Below are positions 1,998 to 27,689 of a DNA stretch of 55,261 nucleotides, one piece after another (the stretch's first letter is position 1; each line of letters starts with the position of its first letter). The stretch is taken from contig JAJDUK010000005.1 of assembly GCA_022826665.1 (NCBI GenBank), positions 1 through 55,261 on the forward strand. Reading direction: 5' to 3'. The position numbers and the translations under genes are program-made. The notes beneath the pieces are model-generated. The model was not told where the DNA came from. It worked only from the letters and a program-made list of their open reading frames with translations, and did no database searches. The DNA comes from Alphaproteobacteria bacterium (GTDB lineage Bacteria; Pseudomonadota; Alphaproteobacteria; UBA828).

Positions 1998-2007
1998 GGA
2001 GGATGAG

Positions 2008-3309
<1,302 letters not shown>

Positions 3310-3329
3310 AGCATTATTCGCTCACGGCA

Positions 3330-3346
3330 GCCGGCCTGCGGCCGGC
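3330..3346 (+). terminator. GC-rich hairpin after aceA
   Basis: GCCGGCC (3330-3336) pairs with GGCCGGC (3340-3346) across a 3-nt loop, 20 nt after the aceA stop. No T-run follows, so intrinsic termination is uncertain; it may instead be a 3'-end stabiliser. Confidence 0.35.
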
Positions 3347-3404
3347 GCCTCCGCGTCGCGCGTCCACGCGCGCGGGCGCGCGATGGCGCCGCTGACGCGG
3401 CGGG

Positions 3405-3585
3405 CCGCGGTCGCGGCCTGTCGCGCGGACCGCAAAGCCGGACGCGCGCCCCCCAAAAACGTCGACCCAGGAGGTGTGGCCAGAAGAGGCGGCGCGGGGG
3501 GCCGGCGGCGGGCCCGCGGTCGCGGCCTGTCGCGCGTCCGTCATCGACGGACGCGCTCCCGCAATAATCGTCGACCGAGGAGTGC
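3405..3585. repeat. Two degenerate ~72-bp direct repeats with 109-bp period
   Basis: A 23-bp identical block occurs at 3405-3427 and 3514-3536. Downstream, both copies share GGACGCGC and a CGTCGACC-N-AGGAG segment (about 3460-3475 and 3569-3584), so the similarity extends about 72 bp. In the second copy an 11-bp perfect stem with a 3-nt loop forms at 3532-3556; in the first it is degenerate. The repeats fill the space between the convergent aceA and amidohydrolase genes and code for nothing I can recognise. Confidence 0.55.
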
Positions 3586-3590
3586 TGCCC

Positions 3591-5321
<1,731 letters not shown>

Positions 5322-6817: not shown

Positions 6818-7687
6818 TTGAATTTGATTTACTGCCCTTATACTGATCAGGAGATTTCAGAAGATAAAGCTAATTCAGAACATATTATTCCGCTCTCTCT
6901 TGGAGGAACAGGAGGATTAGAAATTGACGTTGATAAAACTTTCAATTCAATGCTCGGCAGTGAACTTGATGGTGCGCTAGCGAACGACTTCTTTGTGGCG
7001 CTTCGCCGGACAGAATTTGGCGCGCGCGGGCACAGCCGCAAAGACCCTTGGTTGAAGGTCAAGAGAGCAACTTATGGCGATGAGGATCGGCCGGCGCAAG
7101 TGCGTATTCACCGTCAACACGGACTCGAACTGTGGGACGCAAAAGATCAGAAATCGGTAAAGGGCTCTGTAACCCTCCATATTCAGACCAACTTGGATAT
7201 GAATCTGCCGATTCGCTTTGCAGCAAAGGTAGCCCTAGCCGCAGGCTATTTCGTTTACGGTAACAAATTTCGTAGCCATGTGGATCATCAACAGCTGCGC
7301 GAAATTATGCGAATTGATCTTGCGAGTCTCAACCAAACAGATACTGCACATAAGCTAGGTGAAGACCGTTTTACCGCGTTAGCAGATGATTACCTTAGCG
7401 ACAAACCCTCGCCGGAAGATTGGAGACTTCGATGTATTCGGGCGTTTTGTGATGGGCTGCAAGGATCCGTAATCGTTCTCATACCCAGCACATCTCGTCT
7501 AACAGTTGCGGTTGGAATTCTAGGAAAATATCTCGCAATGATAAATGTTCCTGCTGACACACAGACCTTACCAAACGAGGGAGACCGCGAGTGGGGCCAC
7601 GTTCTTGCGGTCATAGATAAGAGGCTAATACGATGCTCCTGGGCAGAGGGGCTTAGGCGGTATGTAGCTACTCATAGGAAGAAGTGA
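6818..7687 (+). CDS. HNH endonuclease-like protein, AT-rich and isolated
   Basis: The 289-residue product opens with YCPYTDQEIS followed by SEHIIPLSLGG (H22), the His of an HNH/beta-beta-alpha-metal fold, then FNSMLGSELD where related proteins have a C-N-x-x-x-G motif. The first zinc-type CxxC is reduced to one Cys (C6). The rest of the protein has no domain I recognise. An upstream stop in frame at 6809 leaves TTG at 6818 as the start, with AGGA at 6810-6813. Codons are clearly AT-rich against the neighbouring GC-rich genes, pointing to recent transfer. It stands alone between the MetE-like gene and the SDR operon, with no partner that would assign it to a known defence system. Confidence 0.7.
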   Translation: MNLIYCPYTDQEISEDKANSEHIIPLSLGGTGGLEIDVDKTFNSMLGSELDGALANDFFVALRRTEFGARGHSRKDPWLKVKRATYGDEDRPAQVRIHRQHGLELWDAKDQKSVKGSVTLHIQTNLDMNLPIRFAAKVALAAGYFVYGNKFRSHVDHQQLREIMRIDLASLNQTDTAHKLGEDRFTALADDYLSDKPSPEDWRLRCIRAFCDGLQGSVIVLIPSTSRLTVAVGILGKYLAMINVPADTQTLPNEGDREWGHVLAVIDKRLIRCSWAEGLRRYVATHRKK

Positions 7688-7707
7688 TCACGGTAACTGC
7701 ACCTCTA

Positions 7708-7738
7708 TACCCTGTTGGGTAGGATATGACATTGTCAT
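7708..7738. promoter_or_regulatory. Hairpin and 13-bp palindrome before the SDR operon
   Basis: TACCC (7708-7712) pairs with GGGTA (7717-7721) just after the HNH gene; no T-run follows. Next to it ATGACA-T-TGTCAT (7726-7738) is a perfect palindrome about 120 bp before the SDR start, a plausible dimer-binding operator for the SDR-rhodanese-TauD operon. Inference only. Confidence 0.35.
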
Positions 7739-7856
7739 GTCGTGGGGTTTCCCCTTCCAGCGTCACCATGCTCTTGTCCTGTTGTCGCGAGGCGATTTGA
7801 ATGCGCGCTGACCATATGACGGTGTCAACCTGCTTGAAGTGGATGAGGAGGCGTCG

Positions 7857-8630
7857 ATGCGTTTGGCAGGCAAACGCGCGCTGGTGACCGGCGCTGCTTC
7901 GGGCATCGGCGCTGCGACTGCCGAGCGCTTCGCGGCGGAGGGCGCGGCCGTTGTGATCGCCGATCTCAACGGCGCCGGCGCGGACGAGCACGCAGCCGCG
8001 ATCCGCGCTCAGGGAGGAACGGCCGTCGGCCTCACCGCTGACGTGGGAGACGACGCCTCCGTCGCCGCCATGACGGAGCGCGCGTGGGAGACGCTGGGAG
8101 GCGTCGACATCCTCGTCAACAACGCGGCGATTCCGACAATCGGCACCGTCGAGACCCTCGCCGCCGACGAATGGGATCGCGTCATCGACCTCGACCTGTC
8201 GAGCATCTACCGGGCCAGCCGGGCGATATGGCCGCGCTTCGTCGAGGCCGGCGGCGGAACCATTCTGAATACGGCGTCGGTCGCCGGGGTCATCGGCATG
8301 GCCGGTCAACACGGCTATTCCGCCGCCAAGGCGGGGGTGGTGATGCTGACCAAGTGCATAGCCCTCGACGGCGCCGCCCACGGCATCCGCGCGAACTGTG
8401 TCTGTCCCGGCTTCGTCGAGACGCCGATGGTCAATGAGTACTTCGACGCGCAGGACGACCCGGCGGCGAGCCGCGCGGCGGTCAATGCCGCGCATCCTCT
8501 GGGCCGCATGGGCCAACCCGACGAGATCGCGGCGGCGTTCCTCTATCTCGCCTCCGACGAGGCCCGCTGGGTCACCGGCACGGCGCTCGTGATCGACGGC
8601 GGGCTCACCGCCGGGCTGCCGCCGGGTTAG
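7857..8630 (+). CDS. Short-chain dehydrogenase/reductase
   Basis: Classical SDR of 257 residues that should use NAD(P)H to interconvert an alcohol and a carbonyl. It has the cofactor motif TGAASGIG (11-18), NNAA (88-91) and the catalytic S141-Y154-x-x-x-K158 set; D36 after the second beta strand suggests NAD preference. An upstream in-frame GTG (7839) is disfavoured because GAGGAGG lies directly before the ATG at 7857. It is first in an operon with a sulfurtransferase and a TauD-type dioxygenase. The substrate is unknown; annotation as 3-oxoacyl-ACP reductase would be by family resemblance only. Confidence 0.88.
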   Translation: MRLAGKRALVTGAASGIGAATAERFAAEGAAVVIADLNGAGADEHAAAIRAQGGTAVGLTADVGDDASVAAMTERAWETLGGVDILVNNAAIPTIGTVETLAADEWDRVIDLDLSSIYRASRAIWPRFVEAGGGTILNTASVAGVIGMAGQHGYSAAKAGVVMLTKCIALDGAAHGIRANCVCPGFVETPMVNEYFDAQDDPAASRAAVNAAHPLGRMGQPDEIAAAFLYLASDEARWVTGTALVIDGGLTAGLPPG

Positions 8631-8662
8631 CCGCGCCAACCAGAAGACAAGGGAGACCGTCG

Positions 8663-9583
8663 ATGACCGATGGCCGAGCCGACCTCTCGCATTGGCGCGA
8701 GCCGGGCGCACTCATCGAGACCGCCGCGCTCGAGGCGAGCCTCGGTGCACCCGAGCTTCGCATCGTGGACTGCACCACGTGGCTCAAGCCGGCCGAGCCC
8801 GGCGACGACGCCCCCTACCGCGTCGTTCCAGGCCGGGCCGAGTACGACGCGGCGCATATCCCCGGCGCCGTCTTCCTCGACATCCAGGGAACGATTTCCG
8901 ACCCGGACACGCGTCTCAAATTCATGGCGCCGTCGGCCGCGCGCTTCGCAGAGGCCATGGGTGGGCTTGGCATCGGCGACGATTCCCGCGTCGTGCTCTA
9001 TTCCGCCGGCAGCATCATGTGGGCGACGCGGGTCTGGTGGATGCTGCGTGCCTTCGGCTTCGACCGTGCGGCGGTGCTCGATGGCGGCTGGGAGAAGTGG
9101 CAGGCGGAGGAACGCCCCGTCTCCTCCACGCCGGGCCGGTACCCGCCGGCGCGCTTCACCGCTCGGCTCAAGCCGGGTCAATTCGTGGACAGCGACTACG
9201 TGCTCTCCCGGCTCGGCGATACCGACACCGTCGCGGTGAATGCGCTCGCGCCCGAGTTCCATCTCGGCGAAGGCCCGAGCCGCTACGGTCGTCCGGGCCG
9301 GATTCCGGGGAGCGTCAACGTGCCTGCCGCGACGCTCCTCGATCCGTCGGACGGGGCATTCGTGCCGCTGGACGAGGCGCGGCGCCTTCACGAAGACGCT
9401 GGGATTACCCCGGACCGCCACGTCGTCGCCTATTGCGGCGGCGGCATCTCCGCCACCGTGAGCCTCTTCCTCCTTCACCAACTCGGCTACACTGACCTCA
9501 CCCTCTACGACGGGTCGATGGGCGAGTGGGCGCACGACTCCGACTTGCCGATCGAGACGGGTCCTCAAGAGAGCACGAGCTGA
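8663..9583 (+). CDS. Two-domain rhodanese, 3-mercaptopyruvate/thiosulfate sulfurtransferase
   Basis: Transfers a sulfane sulfur from 3-mercaptopyruvate or thiosulfate to a thiophilic acceptor. The 306-residue protein has the two tandem rhodanese domains of the SseA/TST group; the C-terminal active-site loop is CGGGISA with the persulfide-forming cysteine at C258. That loop is neither the CRKGVT of thiosulfate enzymes nor the usual CGSGVTA of mercaptopyruvate enzymes, so the donor is uncertain. AGGGAG precedes the ATG. The stop overlaps the next start by 1 bp (TGATG), implying translational coupling to the TauD-type gene. Confidence 0.87.
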   Translation: MTDGRADLSHWREPGALIETAALEASLGAPELRIVDCTTWLKPAEPGDDAPYRVVPGRAEYDAAHIPGAVFLDIQGTISDPDTRLKFMAPSAARFAEAMGGLGIGDDSRVVLYSAGSIMWATRVWWMLRAFGFDRAAVLDGGWEKWQAEERPVSSTPGRYPPARFTARLKPGQFVDSDYVLSRLGDTDTVAVNALAPEFHLGEGPSRYGRPGRIPGSVNVPAATLLDPSDGAFVPLDEARRLHEDAGITPDRHVVAYCGGGISATVSLFLLHQLGYTDLTLYDGSMGEWAHDSDLPIETGPQESTS

Positions 9584-10470
9584 TGACACTCGAGTTCCGC
9601 AAGCTCCACCCGCTCTTCGCCGCCGAAGTGAGCGCGCTCGATCTGCGCGACGTGCACGACGAGGGGAACCTGGAGCGCATCCGGGCCGGCATGGACGAGC
9701 ACGCGGTGCTCGTGTTCCGGGACCAGGCGTTCTCCAGCGAGGAGCAGCGCGACTTCGCCACCCGGCTCGACGGCGAGCTTCACCGCAAGACCGGCATCAG
9801 CGTCCTGCAGAAGAGCCGCTTCGGCGACGAGGCCATCACCGATGTCTCGAACGTCGATGCGAGCGGAGAAGTCCTGGAATCGGACAGCCGGAAGCGCCTG
9901 TACGGCCTCGCGAACCGCCTCTGGCACACCGATGCGTCGTTTCAGGACCCGCGCGGCCGCTATTCGATGCTGGCCGCCGTCGCACTGCCGCCGGTCGCGG
10001 CCGACACGGAGTTCGCGGACATGCGGGCCGCCTACGATGCGCTAGCCGACGAGACGAAGGCGAAGCTCGAAGGCCTCCGCGTGCACCATTCGATCGCCTA
10101 TTCGCGCATCACGCTCGGCTTCGACTTCTCGGAGGAGGAGAGCGACCAACTCAAGGGGGCCATCCAGCCCATGGTGCTGGAGAACCCGCGCACCGGGCGG
10201 CGCTCCCTCTACCTTGCCTCACACGCGTCGCGGATCCTCGACCGACCGATCCCGGACGGCCGGCTCCTGCTCCGCGACCTCATGGAGCACGCGACAGCGC
10301 CCGAGTTCGTCTACCGGCACTCGTGGCGCCGCGGGGACTTCGTGATCTGGGACAACCGCGCCACGATGCACCGTGCCCGCCCGTTCGAGGACACCCGGCA
10401 CCGGCGCGAGATGCGCCGCGTCACCACCCTCGACATCGGCGATCCGGCCCGGATTGCACAGGCCGTCTAA
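9583..10470 (+). CDS. TauD/TfdA-family Fe(II)/2-oxoglutarate dioxygenase
   Basis: Oxidises an organic substrate with O2 and 2-oxoglutarate; family members attack taurine and other sulfonates, 2,4-D and various acids. In this 295-residue protein the iron triad is H115-x-D117 (in LWHTDASF) and H263 (in NRATMHRARPF), followed by the arginine-rich segment that binds 2-oxoglutarate. The ATG overlaps the stop of the sulfurtransferase gene by 1 bp. At the 3' end its stop codon overlaps the stop of the convergent GMC gene by 4 bp. With a sulfurtransferase beside it an organosulfur substrate is possible, but this is inference. Confidence 0.88.
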   Translation: MTLEFRKLHPLFAAEVSALDLRDVHDEGNLERIRAGMDEHAVLVFRDQAFSSEEQRDFATRLDGELHRKTGISVLQKSRFGDEAITDVSNVDASGEVLESDSRKRLYGLANRLWHTDASFQDPRGRYSMLAAVALPPVAADTEFADMRAAYDALADETKAKLEGLRVHHSIAYSRITLGFDFSEEESDQLKGAIQPMVLENPRTGRRSLYLASHASRILDRPIPDGRLLLRDLMEHATAPEFVYRHSWRRGDFVIWDNRATMHRARPFEDTRHRREMRRVTTLDIGDPARIAQAV

Positions 10471-12062
10471 CCGCCCAGCACCAGGTCCGAGCCCTTCTCG
10501 CCGACCATGATGGACGGCGCATTGGTGTTGGCGCTCGGCACGACCGGCATGATCGAGGCGTCGATCACGCGAAGCCCCTGCACGCCCCGAACCCGGAGCT
10601 CGGGGTCGACCACCGCCATGTCGTCGATGCCCATCTTGCAGGTGCCGACGGGGTGATAGGCGGGCAGCGTGTATTGCCGGACGTAAGCTTCGAGTTCGTC
10701 GTCGCTCCGCACGTCGGGCGCGGGCAGGAACAGGCCCTGGAAGTGCGGCTTGAAGGCCGCGCTCTCGAAGATGCCGCGCGAAACCTTGCAGCCATCCACC
10801 ATGCGCCGCACGTCGTCCTCGTCGTCGAGCAGCTTGGAGAAGATGCGCGGCGGCTCGTTGGGGTCGGCCGAGCGGAGCGTGAGCCTGCTGCGGCTCTTGG
10901 GCCGGCAGACGTTGGCCGGAATGGTGACTCCGGGGCGGTTCAGCAGCTTGATTCCGTCCGGGCCGAACTCGTAGCCGGTCGGCGTGAAGTGGAGCTGGAT
11001 GTCCGGGCGGTCCTCCTCCTCCGGCCGGGTGCGGACGAAGGCCACCGCCTGGGAGATGGGGCTCGCCGCCGGCCCCTTGCCGCGCAGCAGCCAGTTGAGG
11101 CCGTGCTTCACCCAGCCGGCGGCCGTGACCTCGGTGTTGTAGGTGCTGATGTCGACGTAACCTGCCACCCAAGCGACCGGATGCTCCTGCAGGTTGCGGC
11201 CCACCCCCGGTGAATCAGCGACCACGGGGATGCCGAAATCGGAGAGATCGGCTGCGGGCCCGATGCCTGAGCGCAGCAGGATCGCCGGCGAGGCGATGGC
11301 GCCGGCGGAAAGGATGATCTCGCCGTCCGCCCTTGCCTCGCGCTTTTCGCCGCCCCGGCTGTAGACGACCGCGCAGGCGCGCCCCTCTTCGAACAGCACC
11401 TTGTCCACCCGCGCCTCGGTCTCGACGCTGAGATTGAGCCTGTCCATCACCGGCCTCAGATACGCGCGCGCCGTGCTGTTGCGGCGGCCAAAGCGAATCG
11501 TCCCCTGATGCGGGCCGGCGCCTTCCTGGCGCTCGCCGTTCACATCCGGATTGAAGGGGATGCCGAGCTCCTTGGCTGCCTCGATGAAGGTGCGGACCAG
11601 CGGATGGGGCGTCGGCACGTCGGAAACGACGAGCGGGCCGCTGTCCCCGTGATACTCGCTCGGGCCGAGCGGGTTGGTCTCCATGCGCTTGAAGTAGGGC
11701 AGCACGTCGCGGTAGCTCCACGCGCCGGTGTTGCCGATGAGGCGGGCCCAGTCGTCGTAGTCCTCGTGCTGGCCGCGCAGGTAGATCATGCCGTTGATGG
11801 AGCTCGACCCGCCGAGCACCTTGCCGCCCGGCCACATGGCGTCGCGCCCGTTAAGCGTGGGGTCGGGCTCGCTAATGTACATCCAGTTGAAGCGGGGATT
11901 GAGGATGGCCTTGATCTCGCCGGCGGGAATCCGAACGAGCGGGGACGTATCGTTGCCGCCACCTTCCAGCAGCAGGACCTTGTTTCCCGGCTTGGCGGAG
12001 AGCCGATGCGCCAGCACGCACCCGGCCGAGCCCGCGCCGACGATGATGTAATCCCACGCCAT
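10467..12062 (-). CDS. GMC-family FAD oxidoreductase, choline-dehydrogenase-like
   Basis: Flavoprotein alcohol dehydrogenase of the glucose-methanol-choline family. The 531-residue product starts with the FAD-binding motif GAGSAGC, has the first GMC signature around [14 protein letters not shown], and ends with the active-site region HPVGTCKMG and a late N-T-N-A-P-S-I-M block. The ATG at 12062 is chosen because the FAD motif normally begins within about 10 residues of the start. BetA-type choline dehydrogenase is one option, but no betaine-aldehyde dehydrogenase lies nearby, so other alcohols are equally possible. It is monocistronic and convergent with the TauD-type gene. Confidence 0.88.
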
Positions 12063-18847: not shown

Positions 18848-19966
18848 CGTGTCGATGACGGCGGCGAGCGCTTCCACGCAGCCGTGGCCGAGCCTGCGGC
18901 AGTGCGCCGGCGACCAGCCGTGGCGGGCATCGGGCGCGTTGGCCGCGTCCTTGAAGGGCTGCTCCAGGGTCATGGCGAGGCAGCCGTAGGTCTCCGCCAC
19001 GTAGTTGGCGCAGATGCCGAGATTGGCCTTGCCGGGCGGCGTCGGCGGATAGCCGTACTCGGTCTGGAAGTCCGGGCTCGCCGCCGCGAGTGCATCTTGG
19101 AAGCGCGCCTGCTTCTGCGCCAGCGCGTGCGTGTAGGACGGGATGCCCTCGGGCCCGGCGATGAAGGCGTAGGGGAGCGCCTCGTCGCCGTGCACGTCGA
19201 GGCAGAAGTCGACGCCGGTGCGCGCCATCTCGGCACCGACGAGGTAGACCTCCGGGCTCTCCTTCATGCTGGGCTCGGCCCAGGCGCGGTTGAGGTTGAC
19301 GCCCGCCGCGTTGGTCCTGAGATGGCCGCGGCTGCTGCCGTCGGGGTTCATGTTGGGCACCACGCAGATGCGCGCCTTCTCAAGCAGCGTGCGGGCGGCA
19401 GCATCGAAGGGATCCAGCAGCCCATCGAGAAACCCCTCCATCCACCACTCGGCCATGGTCTCGCCTGGATGCTGACGCCCGATGATCCAGCAAGTCCGCT
19501 CCCGTGCCCCACCGATCTCCAGCAGGTCGAGCGGCGCGCCGTCGAGGGTGGTGCCGAGCCGGCGCACTGCGACCAGGGGCGAGCGCCCGACGCGGGCGAT
19601 AAGCGACGCATGGCGCGCCATCGGGTAGGGCGCGAAGTAGGCGAAGCGCACCTCGTCGCCGGCGGGGCGGTGCCGAATGGTCAGCACCGTGCCGTCGTAC
19701 TCGGTCGCGACGCGGAGCCAATCCTCGCCATCCTCCGATGCGACCGCCCGATAGCCCTTCCAGCCCTCGGGGTAGGTGGCGCCACTGGCGTTCTCGATCC
19801 GGAGCACGCAGTCCTCACCCGCCCCGCCGCACAGCCGGAAGTAGAACCACTGGAAGAACGCGCCGCCTTCATCGGGCACGATCTCGAGCCTGATCGGGCC
19901 GGTCTTGGGCAGGGCGAGGCAGCGGATGTTGCCGCCGTCGAAGTTGCAGTCGATGGTGCGGCTCAC
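18839..19966 (-). CDS. M14-type zinc carboxypeptidase, cytosolic CCP-like
   Basis: Zinc metallopeptidase of 375 residues. The N-terminal ~125 residues form the beta-rich domain typical of cytosolic M14 carboxypeptidases, followed by the catalytic domain with zinc ligands H166-x-x-E169 (GRQHPGE) and H259 (LDVHGDE), and a late glutamate E335 in AMTLEQPF as general base. NMNPDG and NLNRAW are characteristic of the CCP/AGBL-like (M14B/D) group. No signal peptide is evident. The start is GTG at 19966, 24 bp after the PLP-enzyme gene, with which it is probably co-transcribed. The substrate is unknown; bacterial members are poorly studied. Confidence 0.87.
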   Translation of the reverse strand: MSRTIDCNFDGGNIRCLALPKTGPIRLEIVPDEGGAFFQWFYFRLCGGAGEDCVLRIENASGATYPEGWKGYRAVASEDGEDWLRVATEYDGTVLTIRHRPAGDEVRFAYFAPYPMARHASLIARVGRSPLVAVRRLGTTLDGAPLDLLEIGGARERTCWIIGRQHPGETMAEWWMEGFLDGLLDPFDAAARTLLEKARICVVPNMNPDGSSRGHLRTNAAGVNLNRAWAEPSMKESPEVYLVGAEMARTGVDFCLDVHGDEALPYAFIAGPEGIPSYTHALAQKQARFQDALAAASPDFQTEYGYPPTPPGKANLGICANYVAETYGCLAMTLEQPFKDAANAPDARHGWSPAHCRRLGHGCVEALAAVIDTLR

Positions 19967-19990
19967 GGCCGGCCCCGCCGTCGGCCGTTA

Positions 19991-21274
19991 TCAGGTCGCA
20001 TAGTTGGAGGCGCCGCGCGTTGTCGCGGTGAGGCCGCCGGAGCGCACGTCCGCCGTGACCTCGGCAAGGTCGGCGAGATAGGCGTCGATGCTCTCGGCAT
20101 GCTTCATGTTGAGCCAGAGCAGGATCGAATCCGGCTCGCGCATGCGGATCGAGCGCCAGCCCCGCGCCGCCGTCCCCTCCTCCACCGCGAAGATGTCGAA
20201 GCCCTCGGCGTAGAACGTGACGTGAAGCGCGTGGGGACGGCCGAGCACGGCGAGCCCCTCGATCGCGCCGATGCCCTCGATCAAACGCTCGCGGATGCGC
20301 CGCTGCACCTCGTAGATGCGGAGATAGCCCTCCTCCCCCAGATGGGTCATCACCGCCCAGGCGCTCGCGACCCCGCCGCCCGAGCGGGTGCCGGTGATAG
20401 TCGGCGTGGAGTAGGTGCCGGCGGGCCAACCCTCGAAGGTGGTGCGGTGGTAGCGCTCCAGCGCCTGATCGCGCAGTAGGCAGAGCGAGATGCCCTTGTG
20501 GGCGTAGCCGAACTTGTGCATGTCCACTGACATCGAGGTAACGCCGGGGACGGCGAAGTCGAACGGCGGGATCGGCTCGCCCAGCATCGTCATGAAGGGC
20601 AGGATCATGCCCCCGATGCAGCCGTCCGAGTGCATCCAGAGGTCGTGGTCTCGAGCGAGCTGCGCGATCTCCTCGATGGGGTCGGTCTCGCCGTAGGGAT
20701 AGGGCGGCGCGGAGCCCGCGATCATGACCGTGTTCTCTGTGATGGCGGCGGCCATGCCGGCGACATCGGCGCGCCAATCCTCGCTCCGGCCCATGCGCAC
20801 GACCTTCATGCCGAGCCAGGCGGCGCCCTTGTCGAAGGCCGCGTGCGCCGTCTTCGGCACCACCACCTCGGGCACGCCGGCAACCGGGCGGTTCTCCCGC
20901 GCCCAGTCCCGCGCGGCCTTCATGGCCATGAGGATGCTCTCGGTGCCGCCGGCGGTGGTGGAGCCGCCGGCGCCCTCAGGCGCGTGCAGGAGGTCGAGCA
21001 CGCCCGCGATCAGCGCGCGCTCGCAGGCGGCGAGGCTCGGATAGGCGCTCGCGGCGAAGAGGCCGTTCTCGTCCCGGTGGATGTCGTAGGCCTCGTGCGC
21101 GCAACGCAACAGGTCCTCGCCCGCGAAGTAGGCGGCGGCGAAGCTTCGCTCGTGGCACCAGGGGTTGTCGTCCGCGTGCGCCGCCAGCATTTCGGCCTTG
21201 AGGTCGTCCCAGGGCCGGCTGGCCTGGGGGAATTCCCGATTCCGCAGCATCTCGACTGCCGCCTTTGCCGCCAT
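19991..21274 (-). CDS. PLP-dependent group II decarboxylase / sphingosine-phosphate-lyase-like enzyme
   Basis: Fold-type I PLP enzyme of 427 residues. The Schiff-base lysine is K254 in SVDMHKFGYAHKG, a motif close to the one in sphingosine-1-phosphate lyase; TAGGTESILMA (about 107-117) holds the phosphate and HSDGCIGG supplies the PLP Asp. Members may be aldehyde-lyases on phosphorylated amino-alcohols or amino-acid decarboxylases. The ATG at 21274 is preceded by GGGAGGAGG; an upstream ATG (21310) is disfavoured. Downstream lies an M14 carboxypeptidase in apparent operon. The substrate cannot be decided from sequence. Confidence 0.85.
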   Translation of the reverse strand: MAAKAAVEMLRNREFPQASRPWDDLKAEMLAAHADDNPWCHERSFAAAYFAGEDLLRCAHEAYDIHRDENGLFAASAYPSLAACERALIAGVLDLLHAPEGAGGSTTAGGTESILMAMKAARDWARENRPVAGVPEVVVPKTAHAAFDKGAAWLGMKVVRMGRSEDWRADVAGMAAAITENTVMIAGSAPPYPYGETDPIEEIAQLARDHDLWMHSDGCIGGMILPFMTMLGEPIPPFDFAVPGVTSMSVDMHKFGYAHKGISLCLLRDQALERYHRTTFEGWPAGTYSTPTITGTRSGGGVASAWAVMTHLGEEGYLRIYEVQRRIRERLIEGIGAIEGLAVLGRPHALHVTFYAEGFDIFAVEEGTAARGWRSIRMREPDSILLWLNMKHAESIDAYLADLAEVTADVRSGGLTATTRGASNYAT

Positions 21275-21385
21275 CGCCTCCTCCCGCCGTGCACTGCGCC
21301 TGGGAGACATAGCAGATCGGGGGTCGGATGGAAGGGCAGAGAGGCGGTTGAAGCGGGGACGGCGCGCCCCCTACGATGCGGGCCG

Positions 21386-21408
21386 GCCCGTCCAGCGTCT
21401 AGACGGGC
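21386..21408 (+). promoter_or_regulatory. Leader stem-loop before the cytochrome c gene
   Basis: GCCCGTC (21386-21392) pairs with GACGGGC (21402-21408). The palindrome CGTCTAGACG (21397-21406) overlaps the second arm, and a pyrimidine-rich TTTCTT follows. The structure ends 26 nt before the start codon and could be an attenuator or an operator. Confidence 0.35.
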
Positions 21409-21434
21409 GCTTTCTTGGACAGGAAGAGAATGCG

Positions 21435-22247
21435 ATGCGTCTAAGGCTCACATTGCTCACCGCCGTGCTCGGGTCGGCGCTGCTGGCGGCTTTCCCCCTT
21501 CGTGCGGCGGAGATGCCATCCGTCGACGACCTTGAGGCCCAGATGGGCGCCCCGGCCGAGACAGTCACGGTCTATGAGCCGCATCTGAGCGTGGGCGATG
21601 AGCATGTCACCGTCGACTACGTGGGCTACCCGGCCGTCGATGTCCTGGCACGGCTTTTCGGTGCGGACTGGGCGAGCCAGGCCGAAACCGTCGAACTCCG
21701 CGCCCTGGACGGCTACGTCCTGCGCGTTGCCGCCGACCGCTTCCTGGCGGTGGACGCCTTCTTCGTCTTCGCGCTGGGAGACGGATCGCCGTTCACGGTC
21801 GACAATCTCTTGCAGAACCAGACCGACGTGCCACTCGGGCCCTACTACCTGGTCTGGGACAATATCGGGAACCCGGCCCTGATCGAGGAGGGTCCGGGCA
21901 CATGGATCTATCAGATAGCCGAGGCCAATCTCGTCACGCTTTCGGACACAGCGCTGTTGCCCGAAGGGCTCGACGCCCGCTTTCACGAGGGCGCGGCGCT
22001 CGCGAAAGAGCACTGCCTGAGATGCCACTTGGTGAACGGTTTCGGCGGCGAGAAGCACGAGGGCAACCTCGCGGAGATCACCAAGGACTACGAAGAGGCG
22101 GTGTTCGTGAGCGTGGTCCTGGCGCCGCTCTCCGTGTTCGAGGAGACGACGATGCCGCCCCTCTCCGACCGCCTGGCCGAGGACGAGCGCCAGCGCATCG
22201 CCAAGGCGCTGTTCGACTACCTCACCGCTATTCCGGTGCTGGATTAG
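21435..22247 (+). CDS. Secreted c-type cytochrome with N-terminal oxidoreductase-like domain
   Basis: Periplasmic protein of 270 residues. A signal peptide covers about residues 1-25 (cleavage near RAAEM). Residues ~30-180 form a domain resembling the molybdopterin-binding/SUOX-like fold found fused to cytochromes (VDYVGYPAVDVLARLFG, LGPYYLVWDN), but I see no obvious molybdenum-ligand cysteine there. The C-terminal ~80 residues carry one haem site, C194-L-R-C197-H198, with M240 in TTMPPLSDRL as probable sixth ligand. AGGAAGAG precedes the ATG. Probably an electron carrier for an unidentified periplasmic dehydrogenase; no partner enzyme is adjacent. Confidence 0.78.
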   Translation: MRLRLTLLTAVLGSALLAAFPLRAAEMPSVDDLEAQMGAPAETVTVYEPHLSVGDEHVTVDYVGYPAVDVLARLFGADWASQAETVELRALDGYVLRVAADRFLAVDAFFVFALGDGSPFTVDNLLQNQTDVPLGPYYLVWDNIGNPALIEEGPGTWIYQIAEANLVTLSDTALLPEGLDARFHEGAALAKEHCLRCHLVNGFGGEKHEGNLAEITKDYEEAVFVSVVLAPLSVFEETTMPPLSDRLAEDERQRIAKALFDYLTAIPVLD

Positions 22248-22306
22248 CAGTCGGCATGCTCTCGGCCGCGCGTCGGCGATCTTGAGGCGGGGGCAACCGG
22301 AGTTCG

Positions 22307-22939
22307 ATGCACAGCAATCCCGCCTTCCGGCGAATCTCCCGGGACCGAAACCTGAGGTTCGCCGCGCAACGCGGGTTCGGCGTCCTGGCCGTCGACGGCG
22401 CGGGCCCGCTCGTCAGCCACATTCCGTTCATTCTGGCCGAAGACGGCGCGGTGGTTCATGCCCATCTCGTTCGTGGGAATCCGATCGCGCGGCACTTGAG
22501 TGAGAAGGAATGCGCGGCCTTGCTGGCGATCAGTGGACCGGACAGCTACGTCTCGCCGGACTGGTACGGCGCCGATGCGGTGGATCAGGTCCCGACGTGG
22601 AACTATGTGGCCGTGCACATCTGGGGCACGCTCCGGCGCCGCCCGGATGAGACGCTCCGCGCCCACCTGGACGCACTGTCGGCCCGGTTCGAGAACGAGC
22701 TTCGGCCCAAGCCTCCTTGGACGCCGGCCAAGGTGTCGCCAGACCGGCTTTCCGAGCTGATGCGCTCGATCATGCCGGTCGAGCTCTCCGTGGAGAGCGT
22801 GGACGGCACCTGGAAGCTCAATCAGAACAAGGACGACCAAGTTCGTCTGCGGGCCGCGGGGCACGTCGAGAGCGACGGCTTGGGGCAAGAGGCCGCCTCG
22901 CTTGCCCACCTGATGAGAAATCCGCCGGAAGATTGTTGA
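22307..22939 (+). CDS. PaiB-like FMN-binding negative transcriptional regulator
   Basis: A 210-residue protein of the PaiB family, which has a split-barrel FMN-binding fold. Recognisable features are SHIPFIL near the N-terminus, SGPDSYVSPDWYG, VPTWNYVAVHIWG and a late WKLNQNK segment, in the family's order. In Bacillus PaiB represses sporulation and protease genes; in proteobacteria the role is undefined and a flavin-reductase-like activity is possible. It follows the cytochrome gene by 59 bp, so co-transcription is possible. GGAG sits just before the ATG. Confidence 0.85.
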   Translation: MHSNPAFRRISRDRNLRFAAQRGFGVLAVDGAGPLVSHIPFILAEDGAVVHAHLVRGNPIARHLSEKECAALLAISGPDSYVSPDWYGADAVDQVPTWNYVAVHIWGTLRRRPDETLRAHLDALSARFENELRPKPPWTPAKVSPDRLSELMRSIMPVELSVESVDGTWKLNQNKDDQVRLRAAGHVESDGLGQEAASLAHLMRNPPEDC

Positions 22940-22961
22940 TCGGCGTGGAAGAGTGATCCCC

Positions 22962-23255
22962 TATTGGAGTGGACTCCTGGTGTCGGACAGTTGGATTGAA
23001 ATGATTTGACCGGTGCGCCGGGCATTCGAAGGATCGACGCCCATGGCTGAGCGCCGAACCCACCGAATCCACAGCATCGCCTTCAAGCGCCAAGTCGTCC
23101 AGGAGCCGCGCGGACGTCGGATGGTGCACGTGCATGGACCGGACCCGCAATCGCTCGCGATCCATCTGACTGACCTCATAAATGAATTCCGACAACGAGG
23201 CTGCGATTTGCGAGCGGCACCTGAGTTCTTGGAATCTGTCGCCACTATTTTATAA
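22962..23255 (+). pseudogene. Remnant of an insertion-sequence transposase (OrfA-type N-terminus)
   Basis: The ATG at 23043 opens a 70-codon frame. Its first 21 residues (RIHSIAFKRQVVQE after MAERRT) match the N-terminus of IS-encoded OrfA/helix-turn-helix transposases, after which similarity is lost and the frame soon ends at 23255. The leader from 22962, with GGAGT-GG-ACTCC and GTCGGACAGTTGGATTGAA, looks like an IS left end. No OrfB or second end follows. I read it as a truncated, frameshifted IS relic; whether any peptide is made is unknown. Confidence 0.5.
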
Positions 23256-23399
23256 GCACCTGAGGTTTTTGGAATTCTTCGTTGAGCATTGCTCAAATGT
23301 TCAACTTTAATTGCGATACTTTAGTTATACTGAATTGTCTAACGTCTCTTGATGGTGTACGAAACGCATATTCTGAACAGATGATAGCAGGGACTAGAC

Positions 23400-24524
23400 A
23401 TGTTCAAAAGGTCAGCATTCATCTCAACGACCATTATAATTGTAGTGAGCTTGTCCGGTTGCGGCGGAGGTTTGAGTGGTCTATCATCTTCATCACAAAC
23501 TTTGTTAATTCAGGACCCAGAGGAACTCCAAGCGCTCGCTGATCGTGAACCGCCGTCCAATTCAGGATCGGAGGACATTGGTGGCCAACTTGACCGAATA
23601 AAGGACATAGCTGTCGACCATCCTCATACTGGCACACTTCTTGTTACAGTATTCCAAGAGCCCTTCGAGCATGTTGACCAACCCCTAGACCCGATAAACT
23701 GTCGTAGCACCGTTTGCATCACACCAGATGGCAGAGTACGGCTAACGGACTTTGAGTTCCGCGCAGCCGAGTACCAAAATCTTATGACACGCCATGATAT
23801 TCCGGTAATATATTTTCAGAAAAGAGATGCCAGTGGTCTCGCCAGCTTTATTGCAGTTTCTGGCAGCACTTCGAATTCACGCAGCACTTCGAACTCACAA
23901 GGTGGACGCAATGACGTTCCTGCCACCGTTGGTTACGGAGCTTGGCTTAAGCACAGTGCCTTTGCTACACTTGCTGGCCCATTCCATACAAGAGTGAGAG
24001 ATGACGGTTTCAGCGTGGCCACATTGGCAGCATTTTATTCCGGGGCGCAGCAGGGTGGCGAATACATTCCGCGAACGGGAGCATTCTCCTTTGGCAATCG
24101 AACCGAGGAAGCAATAGATGATGCGTCTGAATCGGCAACTTGGAAGGGTGTCATGACCGGTATTGACACGGTTTTCGATCATCCAATCCAAGGAGATGCC
24201 ACACTTGCGGTAGAAATGAACCGCCCGTATTCGACTGTAGATGTTACATTTTCTAGAATTTTTGATTTAGAGACGAGGACCCAACTCACTCGACCCGCTT
24301 TGCTCCCCGAGACTAGCCCTAGTGAGGCTCTGGTCATTAATTTCCCTGACCTTCCCTTAACAGAGGCCAACGGATTTGGCCGCACTTGGCCCGATCGGAA
24401 TAACCCTAATTGGTCTATAGAGGGGTGGTTCTATGGTCCCAATCATGCGGAAGCCGGCGGCGTTTTCCAACACCTGGAGTACGAGATGGTCGGTGCTTTT
24501 GGAGTTCGGCTTTCCGAAGAATGA
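23400..24524 (+). CDS. Outer-surface lipoprotein with TbpB-like beta-barrel
   Basis: Predicted lipoprotein of 374 residues with a signal peptide and lipobox LSGC (C21 lipidated). Residues ~25-80 are a Ser/Gly-rich linker. The C-terminal half is rich in short beta strands and ends with WFYGPNHAEAGGVFQ, the signature of transferrin-binding-protein-like solute-binding domains exported by Slam-type translocons in other proteobacteria. A short near-duplicate, SNSRSTSNSQ, lies near residue 160. Base composition is clearly more AT-rich than the chromosome, and it lies between an IS relic and a broken integrase. No TonB receptor or Slam gene is nearby. The ligand is unknown. Confidence 0.72.
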   Translation: MFKRSAFISTTIIIVVSLSGCGGGLSGLSSSSQTLLIQDPEELQALADREPPSNSGSEDIGGQLDRIKDIAVDHPHTGTLLVTVFQEPFEHVDQPLDPINCRSTVCITPDGRVRLTDFEFRAAEYQNLMTRHDIPVIYFQKRDASGLASFIAVSGSTSNSRSTSNSQGGRNDVPATVGYGAWLKHSAFATLAGPFHTRVRDDGFSVATLAAFYSGAQQGGEYIPRTGAFSFGNRTEEAIDDASESATWKGVMTGIDTVFDHPIQGDATLAVEMNRPYSTVDVTFSRIFDLETRTQLTRPALLPETSPSEALVINFPDLPLTEANGFGRTWPDRNNPNWSIEGWFYGPNHAEAGGVFQHLEYEMVGAFGVRLSEE

Positions 24525-24566
24525 GCCTCAAGATAGGTTTCTGGATTGAGAGAAGTCCATCGTACG

Positions 24567-25249
24567 TCAGCGATTTACCGAGTTTCTCTTGCCTGCCACT
24601 AACCTTCCAGAGCTCGGTCGGTAGCGACGCCGATGCGTTCCGCTACCGCATCGGTCTCCCGGTCGACCACATGAGCGCAGCGTCATGCTCGGGCGCTTGT
24701 GGCCGAGTAGAGAGGGGACGACCGGGAGCGGGACGCCTTGCAGAACGGCCTGGCGCATGATGACCGAAAGGATGGGGCGGAGCGGTCGATCGCGACGGGG
24801 TATTGTGCAAGGACGCGAACCACCGCCGAACGTCTTGGGCGGTGATGCCGACGATCGGACGTCCCCCGAACCAGGGGAGGATCTGGTTCTTATAGTAGCC
24901 CCGGTTGACGCTGAGCGTCGACGGCTTCGTATCACCTGAAGACTTTCTCGGCGACCGTCTCGAACGGGGTATCGGGCGGCGCGGCAGCTTCGTCTTCGTT
25001 TCCCTTCCGGATCGCGGCGACGAGTGTCCTAGCCCGCTCGCGCGCCTCGTCGGCGCCGATAGTTCCGGCGCGGCCGACGATCTTCCAGACTCGCCGCCCC
25101 TGGTGCTGGCTATGGATGAAGTAGCGCTTTGCGCCCGAGGATAGGACCCTGACGCCGAAGCCCTTGAGGTCGCGGTCGTGGATGTCGTAGGCGGACTTGC
25201 GGGGCTTGAGAGCCGTGACGCGGCGGTCGTTGAGGCGAAGCGTCGCCAT
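24567..25249 (-). pseudogene. Decayed tyrosine recombinase (phage/island integrase)
   Basis: The N-terminus is intact: ATG at 25249 with AGGAGG 7 nt upstream, then ATLRLNDRRVTALKPRKSA and GFGVRVLSSGAKRYF, the DUF4102 arm-binding domain of P4-like integrases. A stop at 24934-24932 ends that frame. The core-binding segment (VNRGYYKNQILPWFGGRP) continues in another frame, and a third holds GVPLPVVPSLLGHKRPSMTLR, the end of the catalytic domain. Most of the catalytic domain between RPILSVIMRQA and that segment is deleted, including the R-K-H-R positions. It cannot be active and marks an old island insertion. Confidence 0.8.
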
Positions 25250-25412
25250 GAAAATGCCTCCTGTGATCTGTTGCAGCCGGGGCGAGAACAAGGAGCGAAT
25301 TCGCCGTTGCCGGTCGAATCAGGAGGAAATAAGAAACGCCATATCAATGTGTTAGAACCGAAGATGCGCTGCGGGGTGTGTACACCGTAATCCGGTGAAG
25401 TCGGATCGCGCT
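25250..25412. other. Spacer between integrase relic and ybaK-like gene
   Basis: Holds the leader of the integrase relic and no tRNA or obvious attachment repeat. I see no open frame worth calling. Confidence 0.5.
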
Positions 25413-25907
25413 CTACTGTGAGACGGCGATCTCCGCTGTGACCGTCCCGTCGGTGAGGTGCTGAAGCTCGTCGATCGTGGTGGCGAAGACGCAGTGCGGG
25501 TGGCCGGCTGCGGCGTAGACGGTCTCGAAGCGCCCGAGGCTCGCGTCGATCGCGATCGGAAGCGGCGTCTCGTGAGCCAGCGGCGCAACCCCGCCAATGG
25601 AAAACCCCGTGGCGGCGCGGACAGTATCGGCATCGGCGCGGCGGACCTTTCCCTCGCGGCCGAGCGCCCGCCCTAGCGCCTTCGGGTCGCAGCGCCGATC
25701 ACCCGCGACCAGCGCCATCACCGGCGCGCCGGCGACGGTGAAGACCAGCGACTTCACGATGCTGCCCAAGGGCGTGCCGATGCTTTGGGCGGCATCCTCG
25801 GCGCTCCGCGCGGTGCTGGCGAGCGCGATCACCTGCGCCTGCGACCCAGCTTCGGCGAGCTCCGCCTGCACCCGGCGCACCGCCGGATGGGCAATCGGGT
25901 CAGCCAT
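25413..25907 (-). CDS. YbaK/EbsC-family aminoacyl-tRNA deacylase
   Basis: Single-domain editing protein of 164 residues that in characterised relatives hydrolyses mischarged Cys- or Ala-tRNA(Pro). It has the catalytic-lysine segment GSIVKSLVF (K52), VAGDRRCD, and the substrate-pocket motif GFSIGGVAPLAH. The protein starts at ATG 25907, which matches the family N-terminus. It is 10 bp from the glutathione-transferase gene on the same strand and may be the last gene of that operon. Which mischarged tRNA it edits cannot be told. Confidence 0.87.
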   Translation of the reverse strand: MADPIAHPAVRRVQAELAEAGSQAQVIALASTARSAEDAAQSIGTPLGSIVKSLVFTVAGAPVMALVAGDRRCDPKALGRALGREGKVRRADADTVRAATGFSIGGVAPLAHETPLPIAIDASLGRFETVYAAAGHPHCVFATTIDELQHLTDGTVTAEIAVSQ

Positions 25908-25917
25908 CCCCGGCTAC

Positions 25918-26535
25918 CTACTGTGGAACCTTGAGCCCCCGCTGCACCGCGGGCCTCGCCCCGATGGTCTCGAACCAGCGGTGCAGGTTCGGGTAGTCGG
26001 CCCAGTCGATGCCGTGCCACTCCCAGCGCCCGACCCAGCCGACGCAGGCGATATCGGCGATGGAATAGTCGCTCGCGAGGAAGTCGTGCTCCGCCAGCCT
26101 GCGATCCATCACGCCGTAGAGCCGGTGCGCCTCGGTGGTGTAGCGCTCGATGGCGTAGGGCACCTCCTCCTTGGCGAAGCGCCGAAAGTGGTTGGCCTGG
26201 CCGAACATCGGGCCGACACCTCCCATCTGGAACATCAGCCACTCCATCACCCGCCAGCGCCCGCGCGCGTCCTCGGGGATCAGCTGGCCGGTCTTGTCCG
26301 CGAGATAGAGCAGGATGGCGCCGGACTCGAAGAGCGAAATGGGCTCGCCGTCCGGCCCGTCGGAATCGACGATCGCGGGGATCTTGTTGTTGGGGCTGAT
26401 CTTGAGGAACTCGGGATCGAACTGCTCGTCCTCCAGGATGTTGACCGTGTGTGCCCGGTAGGGGAGCCCGACCTCCTCGAGCATGATGGAGACCTTCACG
26501 CCGTTGGGCGTGCCGAAGGTGTAGAGGTCGATCAT
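25918..26535 (-). CDS. Glutathione S-transferase family protein (copy 2)
   Basis: A 205-residue GST of the YfcG/nu-like type. The thioredoxin-fold domain begins MIDLYTFGTPNGVKV with the catalytic-region Thr/Asn-Gly, followed by NNKIPAIVD and the glutathione-binding LFESGAIL. The helical C-terminal domain contains SIADIACVGWV. It is closely related to the GST gene 11 bp upstream and shares its gene order and orientation, so the pair arose by tandem duplication. YfcG-type members have disulfide-bond reductase activity rather than classical conjugation. The start at 26535 is fixed by the family N-terminus. Confidence 0.9.
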   Translation of the reverse strand: MIDLYTFGTPNGVKVSIMLEEVGLPYRAHTVNILEDEQFDPEFLKISPNNKIPAIVDSDGPDGEPISLFESGAILLYLADKTGQLIPEDARGRWRVMEWLMFQMGGVGPMFGQANHFRRFAKEEVPYAIERYTTEAHRLYGVMDRRLAEHDFLASDYSIADIACVGWVGRWEWHGIDWADYPNLHRWFETIGARPAVQRGLKVPQ

Positions 26536-26546
26536 CGCTTCGCTCC

Positions 26547-27242
26547 CTACCGCGCTTCGAACTGCTTGGCGCCGAACATGATCGAGCGCTCTTCCTCGGT
26601 GAACACGGGCTTCTTGCGGATCTGGTCGGCCATCACATCGAGGCCGCGCCGCACCGCCGGGCGCTCCTTGTTGCGCTCCAACCAGGCGCCGAGGTGGGGA
26701 TAGTTCTCGATCTCCTGCCCCTGGTTGTACCAAAGCCGCATCCACGGAAAGATCGCCATGTCGGCGATGGAGTACTCGCCCGCGACCCACTCGCGGTCCT
26801 CAAGCCGCTTGTTCACCACCCGGTAGAGCCGGCTCGCCTCGTTGGTGTAGCGCTCCACCGCGTAGGGGAGCTGCTCCGGCGCGTAGTTGCGGAAGTGGTG
26901 GCACTGGCCGAGCATCGGCCCGACGTTGCCCATCTGGAAGAAGAGCCACTGCAGCACCTCGGCCCGGCCGCGCTCGTCGGCGGGGATGAAGCGGCCGTGC
27001 TTGTCGGCGTAGTGCAGCATGATCGCACCAGATTCGAAGAGCGAGAGCGGCTTGCCGTCCGCCCCCTCGGGGTCGACCACCGCCGGCATCCGGTTGTTGG
27101 GGGCGATGGCGAGGAAGTCCGCCTCGAACTGCTCGCCCTTGTTGATGTCCACGGGAATCACGTTGTACGGGATGCCGAGCTCCTCGAAGAGGATGGTAAG
27201 CTTCCACCCGTTCGGCGTCGGCCAGTAGTAGAGATCGATCAT
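26547..27242 (-). CDS. Glutathione S-transferase family protein (copy 1)
   Basis: A 231-residue GST related to copy 2 but with a longer C-terminal tail (ADQIRKKPVFTEEERS), as in YfcG/YghU-like proteins. It begins MIDLYYWPTPNGWKL, with NNRMPAVVD and LFESGAIM for glutathione binding and YSIADMAIFPW in the helical domain. It is the first gene of a probable three-gene operon with copy 2 and the YbaK-like gene. Likely a glutathione-dependent disulfide reductase or detoxifying enzyme; substrate unknown. Confidence 0.9.
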   Translation of the reverse strand: MIDLYYWPTPNGWKLTILFEELGIPYNVIPVDINKGEQFEADFLAIAPNNRMPAVVDPEGADGKPLSLFESGAIMLHYADKHGRFIPADERGRAEVLQWLFFQMGNVGPMLGQCHHFRNYAPEQLPYAVERYTNEASRLYRVVNKRLEDREWVAGEYSIADMAIFPWMRLWYNQGQEIENYPHLGAWLERNKERPAVRRGLDVMADQIRKKPVFTEEERSIMFGAKQFEAR

Positions 27243-27689
27243 GGCGCCCTTCTCCCTCGCCGCTTTGGGCCGGAGTTCAGCCCGACCCTCTTATGACCAG
27301 CCGGCCCCGGCCGGTCAACGTCGCCCGAACCCGCGTGGTCTTGCGCGCGGCAGGGACGGGCGCGGGCGTGCAGCGGGGGAATGCGGGACTCGCCGGGATT
27401 CCGCGGAGCCGACGGCGGCAGTCGTCTTTAGCGGCGGCGGCAACGGCGCCTACCGAAAGCGCCTGTCGCTCCTGCTGCGAGGCTCCGTGTTCTCTATCTA
27501 CTTGGGGGTTGACCTCCTTGCTGTCCGTTCATCCCATGGCGCGATGACGGCGCACCCGCCGCGCGCGGTGCACCGCACCATGGTCCGGGTCAACTCAGGT
27601 CAGCTCGACCAGCGGCCGTCGAAAGTTCCGATACGGTCTGGCCGCGTCGCCTACACGAAAGTAAACGGTCTTGGGCGCTGCCTAACCTC
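27243..27689. other. Intergenic region without recognisable genes
   Basis: About 450 bp between the GST operon and the secreted-protein gene. Plus-strand open frames here have no recognisable domain and Arg/Pro-heavy composition typical of non-coding GC-rich DNA. A palindrome CCGGCC-CC-GGCCGG lies at 27301-27314. The GST promoter should lie near 27243-27330. Confidence 0.5.

What the first reader, a model, noticed from the sequence alone, without database searches (positions are those of the whole stretch)
23400..24524. TbpB-like surface lipoprotein without its usual partners
The protein has a lipobox (C21) and the FYGPNHAEAGGVF end of transferrin-binding-protein-like domains, but no Slam translocon or TonB receptor is adjacent and the gene is AT-rich inside a decayed island. 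It could be a surface protein acquired by transfer, for binding host proteins, haem or metals.
Basis: partly seen in the sequence, partly recalled or inferred. Interest (0 to 1): 0.5.

Follow-up and report, generated by a model that had tools for sequence, protein, structure and literature searches.

The report
Island-borne TbpB-type surface lipoprotein
An alphaproteobacterium that probably lives in marine sponges carries, on a small worn-out mobile island, a lipoprotein with the predicted fold of surface proteins that pathogens use to bind animal proteins or haem, and its genome also encodes the Slam export gate such proteins need.

Summary
Observation confirmed. Window 23400-24524 (+) is an intact 374-aa ORF with a lipobox at C21 and a TbpB-type end. 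By sequence alone it is marginal (Pfam TbpB_B_D 21 bits, cut-off 26), but three tandem paralogues in the genome pass. Its AlphaFold model is a handle plus C-terminal barrel; all 50 PDB entries listed by VIA-align are HphA-type haemophores, TbpB, fHbp or NHBA (Z up to 14.0).

'Without its usual partners' holds only locally. Two Slam (PF04575) genes lie on another contig, each beside a large cargo-like gene. The genome has seven matches to this lipoprotein family, none on that contig. Of 385 alphaproteobacterial genomes drawn, 13 match the family and all 13 have Slam, against 21 of the other 372.

The gene sits in a 2.5-kb island, absent from this site in 5 of 7 congeners, with an IS3-like remnant and a deleted tandem-integrase remnant.

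Best reading: a horizontally gained, single-lobe surface lipoprotein exported by a distant Slam, in a presumed sponge-symbiont lineage; ligand unknown. New member of a known kind. Its setting (many unlinked barrel lipoproteins, few Slams, Slams near integrases) appeared in none of the papers my searches reached.

The parts
22935..25410 (.). Inserted island of about 2.48 kb
   Evidence: Left flank homology ends near 22934 and right flank homology starts near 25411. The two flanks lie 8-17 bases apart in G001, G002, G005, G006 and G007.
22935..23105 (+). IS3-type insertion-sequence remnant (element end plus start of orfA)
   Evidence: 91% and 86% identical to pieces in G004:C197 and G005:C129. 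The longer copy in G005 encodes HTH_Tnp_1 and HTH_21/rve proteins; the name 'IS3-type' is my reading of these domains.
23400..24524 (+). TbpB-type single-lobe lipoprotein gene, 374 aa, open reading frame intact
23400..23462 (+). Lipoprotein signal peptide and lipobox with Cys21, followed by a Gly/Ser-rich stretch
   Evidence: Sequence; Cys21 is invariant in the 37 aligned proteins.
23463..23924 (+). Tether and handle domain with Cys101 and Cys106, predicted disulfide hairpin
   Evidence: Cys pair invariant in the 37 aligned proteins; strands 99-102 and 105-108 in the model. The disulfide is inferred, and much of the handle is modelled at low confidence.
23925..24521 (+). C-terminal beta-barrel of TbpB/HphA/fHbp/NHBA type
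   Evidence: Strands from residue 176 to 371, ten-residue pLDDT means of 75-96 except 191-220 and 301-310. NHBA C-domain 6cuj_B Z 13.2, 141 residues, rmsd 3.1.
24630..24754 (-). C-terminal remnant of the second integrase of a tandem pair
   Evidence: 75-82% identical to copies in L125, L132, L133 and L134. In these four, about 1.6 kb that is missing here separates this piece from the next one.
24746..25380 (-). N-terminal part of the first tyrosine integrase of the pair, broken
   Evidence: 73-77% identical to copies in L125 and L132-L135. PF13356 Arm-DNA-bind_3 E 4e-10.
22307..22939 (+). Left neighbour: FMN-binding protein gene, resident
   Evidence: PF04299 131 bits; syntenic in congeners.
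25413..25907 (-). Right neighbour: aminoacyl-tRNA editing protein gene (YbaK type), resident
   Evidence: PF04073 93 bits; syntenic in congeners.

Best explanation
The gene encodes a single-lobe surface lipoprotein of the class exported by Slam (type 11 secretion). It would be made with a lipoprotein signal peptide, lipidated at Cys21, carried to the outer membrane, and moved to the cell surface by one of the genome's two Slam proteins, which are encoded on another contig (C56). The C-terminal barrel, the part shared with Slam-adjacent cargos, is the likely export domain. The handle, probably pinned by a Cys101-Cys106 disulfide, presents variable loops that bind something outside the cell, most likely a host or environmental macromolecule, or haem. 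The gene arrived by horizontal transfer on a small integrase-bearing island whose integrase has since been broken. Shown: ORF, lipobox, fold class of the model, Slam genes in the genome, co-occurrence, insertion site. Inferred: surface display, dependence on Slam, disulfide, binding role, direction of transfer. Unknown: ligand and donor.
For: Fold: AlphaFold2 model of the window protein (37-sequence alignment; mean pLDDT 70.2, pTM 0.74). VIA-align gives HphA 8gmm Z 14.0 (193 aa, 4.3 A), TbpB C-lobe 5kkx Z 13.3 (190 aa, 3.9 A), fHbp 8bk2 Z 13.3 (168 aa, 3.4 A), NHBA 6cuj Z 13.2 (141 aa, 3.1 A); all 50 rows shown are of these kinds. A family exemplar (L071) models at pLDDT 88.3, pTM 0.85, with the same outcome in its 50 rows, and Foldseek also lists the Slam-dependent lipoprotein PmSLP 9b3e (E 6e-4). 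Slam: two PF04575 genes, 89.6 and 76.1 bits; 0 of 14 control genomes. Co-occurrence: family profile in 13 of 385 class genomes, Slam in 34 of 385, all 13 in common (Fisher 1.7e-15; without own genus 11 of 11, 2.3e-13). Linkage: in G036 a distant member (profile E 2.8e-9) ends about 20 bp before Slam; in G307 Slam is followed by two matching ORFs (E 7e-5 and 3e-34). A profile of 12 Slam-adjacent cargos of the genus matches the family profile over the barrel (HHalign 94.7%, E 6e-8). Transfer: empty site in 5 of 7 congeners, GC 50% against 67%, at best about 30% identity to any aligned relative.
Against: The window protein misses the Pfam TbpB_B_D cut-off (21 of 26 bits) and is far below the NCBIfam slam_lipo cut-off (15.3 of 80). 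No Slam is adjacent. The two Slams have their own neighbouring cargo-like genes, so they may not accept this one; those two C56 proteins have no TbpB_B_D hit, and singly only 5 of the 12 Slam-adjacent cargos match the family profile at E up to 10, neither C56 protein among them. Foldseek TM-scores are low (query-normalised 0.22-0.36). Parts of the handle are poorly modelled. G003 (93% complete) has Slam but no family member; G007 (67% complete) has the family but no Slam; the single G004 match contains a stop. In the class search at most 6 candidates per genome were scored, and relatedness is not corrected for. The genome is a draft with 4% contamination and C56 is a 14.7-kb contig. No expression or surface data exist here.
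Confidence: 0.75

Rival explanations
1. It is a TbpB-fold lipoprotein that stays on the inner face of the outer membrane and is not a Slam cargo; the co-occurrence reflects shared lineages only.
For: No Slam adjacent; NCBIfam slam_lipo cut-off not met; the genome's two Slams have their own neighbouring cargo-like genes, which singly do not match the family profile.
Against: The overlap, 13 of 13, spans 8 taxonomic families of the class draw. Profile-matching proteins lie beside Slam in G036 and G307. As a group, the Slam-adjacent cargos share the barrel.
Confidence: 0.15
2. It is a relic: a gene carried in with a dead island, no longer used.
For: The integrase next to it is broken and the IS piece is truncated. 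The promoter scan shows no sigma-70-like match between the island edge and the gene. It has the longest end branch of the tree, 2.08.
Against: The ORF is open over 374 codons and keeps the lipobox Cys, the Cys pair and the other columns invariant in the 37-row alignment. This is weak, as the window row is itself one of the 37.
Confidence: 0.15
3. It is a haemophore of the hemophilin (HphA) type.
For: Best VIA row is HphA (Z 14.0); paralogue A1 shows a sub-cut-off HphA_C hit (20.7 of 31 bits). His185 is nearly invariant (90% or more) and could be a ligand.
Against: TbpB, fHbp and NHBA rows are tied within 1 Z. The window protein has no HphA_C hit. No His or Tyr is fully invariant in the 37 rows. 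No TonB receptor among the six neighbours scanned.
Confidence: 0.12

Closest known systems
TbpB/LbpB C-lobe (PF01298 TbpB_B_D)
   Same: Lipobox, handle plus C-terminal barrel, end motif; Z 13.3 to 5kkx. Neisserial TbpB is also unlinked to its Slam (PMC5449769 passage).
   Different: One lobe, not two; no TbpA-like gene among the six neighbours scanned; 16% identity to 5kkx in the structural alignment. Transferrin seems an unlikely ligand in a sponge (recalled, not tested).
Hemophilin HphA
   Same: Single lobe; best fold score, Z 14.0.
   Different: Haem-pocket residues were not compared; HphA_C profile not matched by the window protein.
fHbp and NHBA C-domain
   Same: Lipoproteins with one such barrel, Z 13.3 and 13.2.
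   Different: Only 11% and 18% identity in the structural alignment; NHBA reaches E 0.54 by sequence. Ligand unknown.
Marine cluster 3 T11SS of Rhodobacteraceae (PMC12282271, abstract, passages and section 17 read)
   Same: Marine alphaproteobacterial Slam homologues.
   Different: There TbpBBD cargo is rare (8 of 145 loci) and DUF1194 common (102 of 145). Here one genome has seven barrel-family matches, none on the Slam contig. I did not assign the C56 Slams to a published cluster.

Membership tests
Slam/T11SS surface lipoprotein (broad class) | N-terminal lipoprotein signal peptide | tested here: met
   LSGC at 18-21; Cys21 invariant in the 37 aligned proteins.
Slam/T11SS surface lipoprotein (broad class) | Handle domain followed by C-terminal barrel | tested here: met
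   Model and PDB matches; exemplar model at pLDDT 88.3.
Slam/T11SS surface lipoprotein (broad class) | Slam encoded in the same genome | tested here: met
   Two PF04575 genes over the cut-off, with sub-cut-off TPR_Slam hits upstream of the barrel.
Slam/T11SS surface lipoprotein (broad class) | Surface display dependent on Slam | not testable with these tools
   Needs an expression assay.
NCBIfam NF041636 slam_lipo | Score over the curated cut-off of 80 bits | tested here: not met
   15.3 bits; paralogues 39.1, 35.5 and 27.2. Not filed under this model.
Pfam PF01298 TbpB_B_D | Score over the gathering cut-off of 26 bits | tested here: not met
   Window protein 21 bits; its three tandem paralogues pass.
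TbpB proper | Two lobes | tested here: not met
   374 aa with one handle-barrel unit in the model.
TbpB proper | Paired TbpA-type TonB receptor | tested here: inconclusive
   None among six neighbours; no genome-wide search was run.
HphA hemophilin | HphA_C profile and haem binding | tested here: inconclusive
   Fold matches, no profile hit; binding not testable.
fHbp/NHBA | Factor H or heparin binding | not testable with these tools
   Only the fold was compared.

The most novel reading that the evidence does not exclude
Sponge-associated alphaproteobacteria run a plug-in surface-protein system: a few Slam gates, themselves near integrases on what look like mobile islands, serve a large and exchangeable set of unlinked single-gene barrel lipoproteins. 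Some of these, like this one, move between lineages as small integrase-bearing cassettes, so that symbionts swap host-facing proteins without moving the exporter.
Probability: 0.3. Interest if true: 0.65.

Novelty: new member of a known kind. Interest (0 to 1): 0.45.

Why it matters
How bacteria that live in sponges put proteins on their surface is poorly known. A survey of about 1200 MAGs from seven sponge species noted that few lineages encode the genes to form secretion systems (PMC8163846, abstract start, passage). If this reading holds, Slam and its barrel lipoproteins are a candidate route in at least one presumed sponge-symbiont lineage, and a fold best known from pathogens' surface proteins would also be a symbiosis tool. 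The exporter-cargo pairs are small enough to test in E. coli.

Tried and rejected
Single-sequence scan of genome contigs with P0001: 23 pattern matches, no confirmed relative; a profile was needed. tblastn of P0001 against plasmids: no match. Profile scan of viral contigs: 57 pattern matches, no confirmed relative. So no phage or plasmid carrier was found. A DAHP-synthase (aldolase) match in the PDB sequence search (E 0.16) was judged chance. Foldseek rows outside the TbpB/HphA/fHbp/NHBA/LbpB group, BFA1 5yvf (E 2.5e-5 to 1.6e-4) and AttH 2ich (E 5.5e-4), were set aside because none is among the 50 VIA rows; that does not exclude other relatives. Early neighbour clustering was discarded because antisense shadow ORFs dominated it; integrase neighbours were counted by tblastn and Pfam instead. 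One search stopped on a parsing error and was rerun. One search failed on a file name and was rerun. Promoter scan: 3 sites against 1.4 expected, the two on the gene's strand inside the ORF, so uninformative. Tree placement of the window protein is unsure (long branch), so no donor is named. A paper search for two of the other bin names found nothing.

Full report
WHAT IS THERE. Window 23400-24524 (+) is an open 374-codon gene. Pfam gives TbpB_B_D at 21 bits (cut-off 26) over residues 335-368 only; NCBIfam slam_lipo gives 15.3 bits (cut-off 80). On the single sequence, membership is not earned. A search of the own genome found relatives on contig C32. Three tandem lipoprotein genes lie there (L006 7537-8376, 8373-9293, 9333-10220). 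They pass the Pfam cut-off at 29.8, 26.6 and 27.6 bits and match the window protein at about 30% identity, E 3e-14 to 4e-7. A profile of the four (alignment A1) gives seven matches in this genome: three on C32, and one each on C85 (this one), C68, C21 and C10. The six resident neighbours scanned are a decarboxylase, a cytochrome-c-like protein, an FMN-binding protein, a tRNA-editing protein and two glutathione S-transferases; none is a TonB receptor or a Slam.

FAMILY. A profile scan of genome contigs returned 29 loci, all titled as metagenome-assembled genomes. Most are labelled Rhodospirillales/Defluviicoccus, Boseongicola, Silicimonas or Alphaproteobacteria; three (L070, L075, L083) bear an Acidobacteria, Bryobacterales or Chloroflexi label and may be mis-binned. 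From 41 proteins extracted at E below 1e-25 I aligned 36 with the window protein and left out five short or ill-started ones. Fourteen columns are invariant in the 37 rows: Cys21, Cys101, Cys106, F188, G232, A246, W248, G250, G265, G342, G346, E351, G354, F367; His185 is among the nearly invariant ones. Cys101 and Cys106 sit on two adjacent short strands in the model, so a disulfide hairpin is likely. Its nearest kin cannot be named. The same tree groups C32 paralogue A3 with two Silicimonas proteins and one unclassified alphaproteobacterial protein (100/97), which suggests exchange between orders.

FOLD. AlphaFold2 of the window protein: mean pLDDT 70.2, pTM 0.74; C-terminal strands (176-371) at block means of 75-96 except 191-220 and 301-310; signal peptide and parts of the handle poor. 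Foldseek ranks HphA, TbpB and LbpB highest, E from 1.6e-6, but with low query-normalised TM-scores (0.22-0.36 in the 50 rows) and large rmsd; BFA1 5yvf also appears. In VIA-align all 50 entries shown are HphA-type haemophores, TbpB, fHbp or NHBA, best Z 14.0. The exemplar L071 models better (88.3, pTM 0.85), with fHbp 4z3t Z 14.1, TbpB C-lobe Z 14.0, HphA Z 13.9 and NHBA Z 13.7. Rows within 1 Z are ties, so the class is clear but not which member. Structures of known Slam-dependent lipoproteins share this handle-plus-barrel build; fHbp and HpuA have one lobe, TbpB and LbpB two (PMC5449769 section 16, read).

PARTNERS. Two Slam genes lie on contig C56, 89.6 and 76.1 bits to PF04575; 0 of 14 control genomes ring. 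Each is next to a large lipobox protein (697 and 846 aa). The genus has 20 PF04575 matches. The 16 stretches I took around them hold 18 Slam ORFs, of which 12 have a same-strand cargo-like ORF overlapping or within about 530 bp upstream (read; cargo-like ORFs were picked by a C-terminal GxFG-type end or by a shared signal peptide). The profile of the 12 cargos matches the lipoprotein family over the barrel (HHalign 94.7%, E 6e-8), yet singly only 5 of the 12 match the family profile at E up to 10, and neither C56 cargo does. In the genus, 7 of 8 genomes have Slam and 7 of 8 match the family (the single G004 match holds a stop). The exceptions are G003 (Slam only, 93% complete) and G007 (family only, 67% complete). 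None of the 13 genomes of other genera in the same family has either. In a class-wide draw of 385 genomes, 13 match the family, 34 have Slam, and all 13 have both (Fisher 1.7e-15, without own genus 11 of 11, 2.3e-13). These 13 fall in 8 taxonomic families. Caveats: at most 6 candidates per genome were scored, and relatedness is not corrected for. Linkage: in G036 a distant member ends about 20 bp before Slam; in G307 Slam is followed by two matching ORFs; in G305, G382 and G096 both lie within about 12 kb. Thus the missing neighbour in the window is ordinary: NmTbpB and NmLbpB are also encoded away from Slam1 (PMC5449769 passage).

ISLAND. DNA of window 19900-27300 against the 7 congeners: the flanks are 8-17 bases apart in 5 (G001, G002, G005, G006, G007), separated by about 2.2 kb of other DNA in G003, and not found as a pair in G004 (62% complete). 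The island holds an IS3-type remnant, the lipoprotein gene, and an integrase remnant made of the N-terminal part of one tyrosine integrase and the C-terminal end of its tandem partner. Pairs elsewhere in the genus carry about 1.6 kb more between these pieces; those in L125 and L132 are open pairs of 374-386 aa. GC of the lipoprotein gene is 50.0%, of the window 66.8%.

INTEGRASES. The genus holds 144 Arm-DNA-bind_3 matches in about 31.3 Mb. The 16 Slam stretches (134 kb) contain 13 of them, in 7 stretches, against 0.62 expected (Poisson 1.7e-13). These contigs are short and probably repeat-bounded, which inflates the figure. For the lipoprotein family itself the link is weak: of 50 family stretches searched by tblastn with four integrase queries (some overlapping each other), 4 have an integrase: the window, L083 (convergent, as in the window), L158 (adjacent) and L168 (3.3 kb away). 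Linkage of T11SS to mobile islands has been reported for cluster 1 (PMC12282271 abstract and passages), so that part is not new in kind.

HABITAT. The bin prefixes RHO, IRC, CAR and CLI fit four of the seven sponge species of a published survey (Rhopaloeides, Ircinia, Carteriospongia, Cliona; PMC8163846 passage).

IN PRINT? Searches for sponge + symbiont + surface lipoprotein + Slam, sponge + symbiont + TbpB, DUF560 + sponge and sponge + type 11 secretion each found 0 papers in the held open library, which lacks preprints and most subscription papers.

VERDICT. A TbpB-type, single-lobe lipoprotein, probably Slam-exported, gained on a now-broken mini-island. New member of a known kind; the wider setting is the interesting part.

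Noticed in passing
L009 (G000:C56) 877-4612 and 7327-11363: Two opposed cargo-Slam modules on a contig with tyrosine integrases. The two cargos share a nearly identical signal peptide (92% over 26 aa) but diverge in the mature part; close variants of that signal recur before other Slam-linked cargos of the genus.
   Followed up: partly
L006 7537-10220 (G000:C32): Tandem array of three family lipoproteins, two of them 62% identical; adjacent family members also in L068, L070, L072, L074 and L075.
   Followed up: partly
L140 2290-5658 (G001:C4): 1122-aa ORF with three separate family matches, about 13 kb from a Slam gene.
   Followed up: no
L131 (G003:C146), between the two window flanks: The same site holds about 2.2 kb of different DNA in G003, so it may be an insertion hot spot.
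   Followed up: no
window 6818-7687: ORF in an AT-richer stretch (GC 0.54 at 7001-8000) whose start looks like an HNH-type nuclease (recalled, not searched); possibly another acquired gene.
   Followed up: no
L083, L070, L075: Family members on contigs labelled Chloroflexi, Acidobacteria or Bryobacterales sit among alphaproteobacterial ones in the tree; mis-binning is likely.
   Followed up: no
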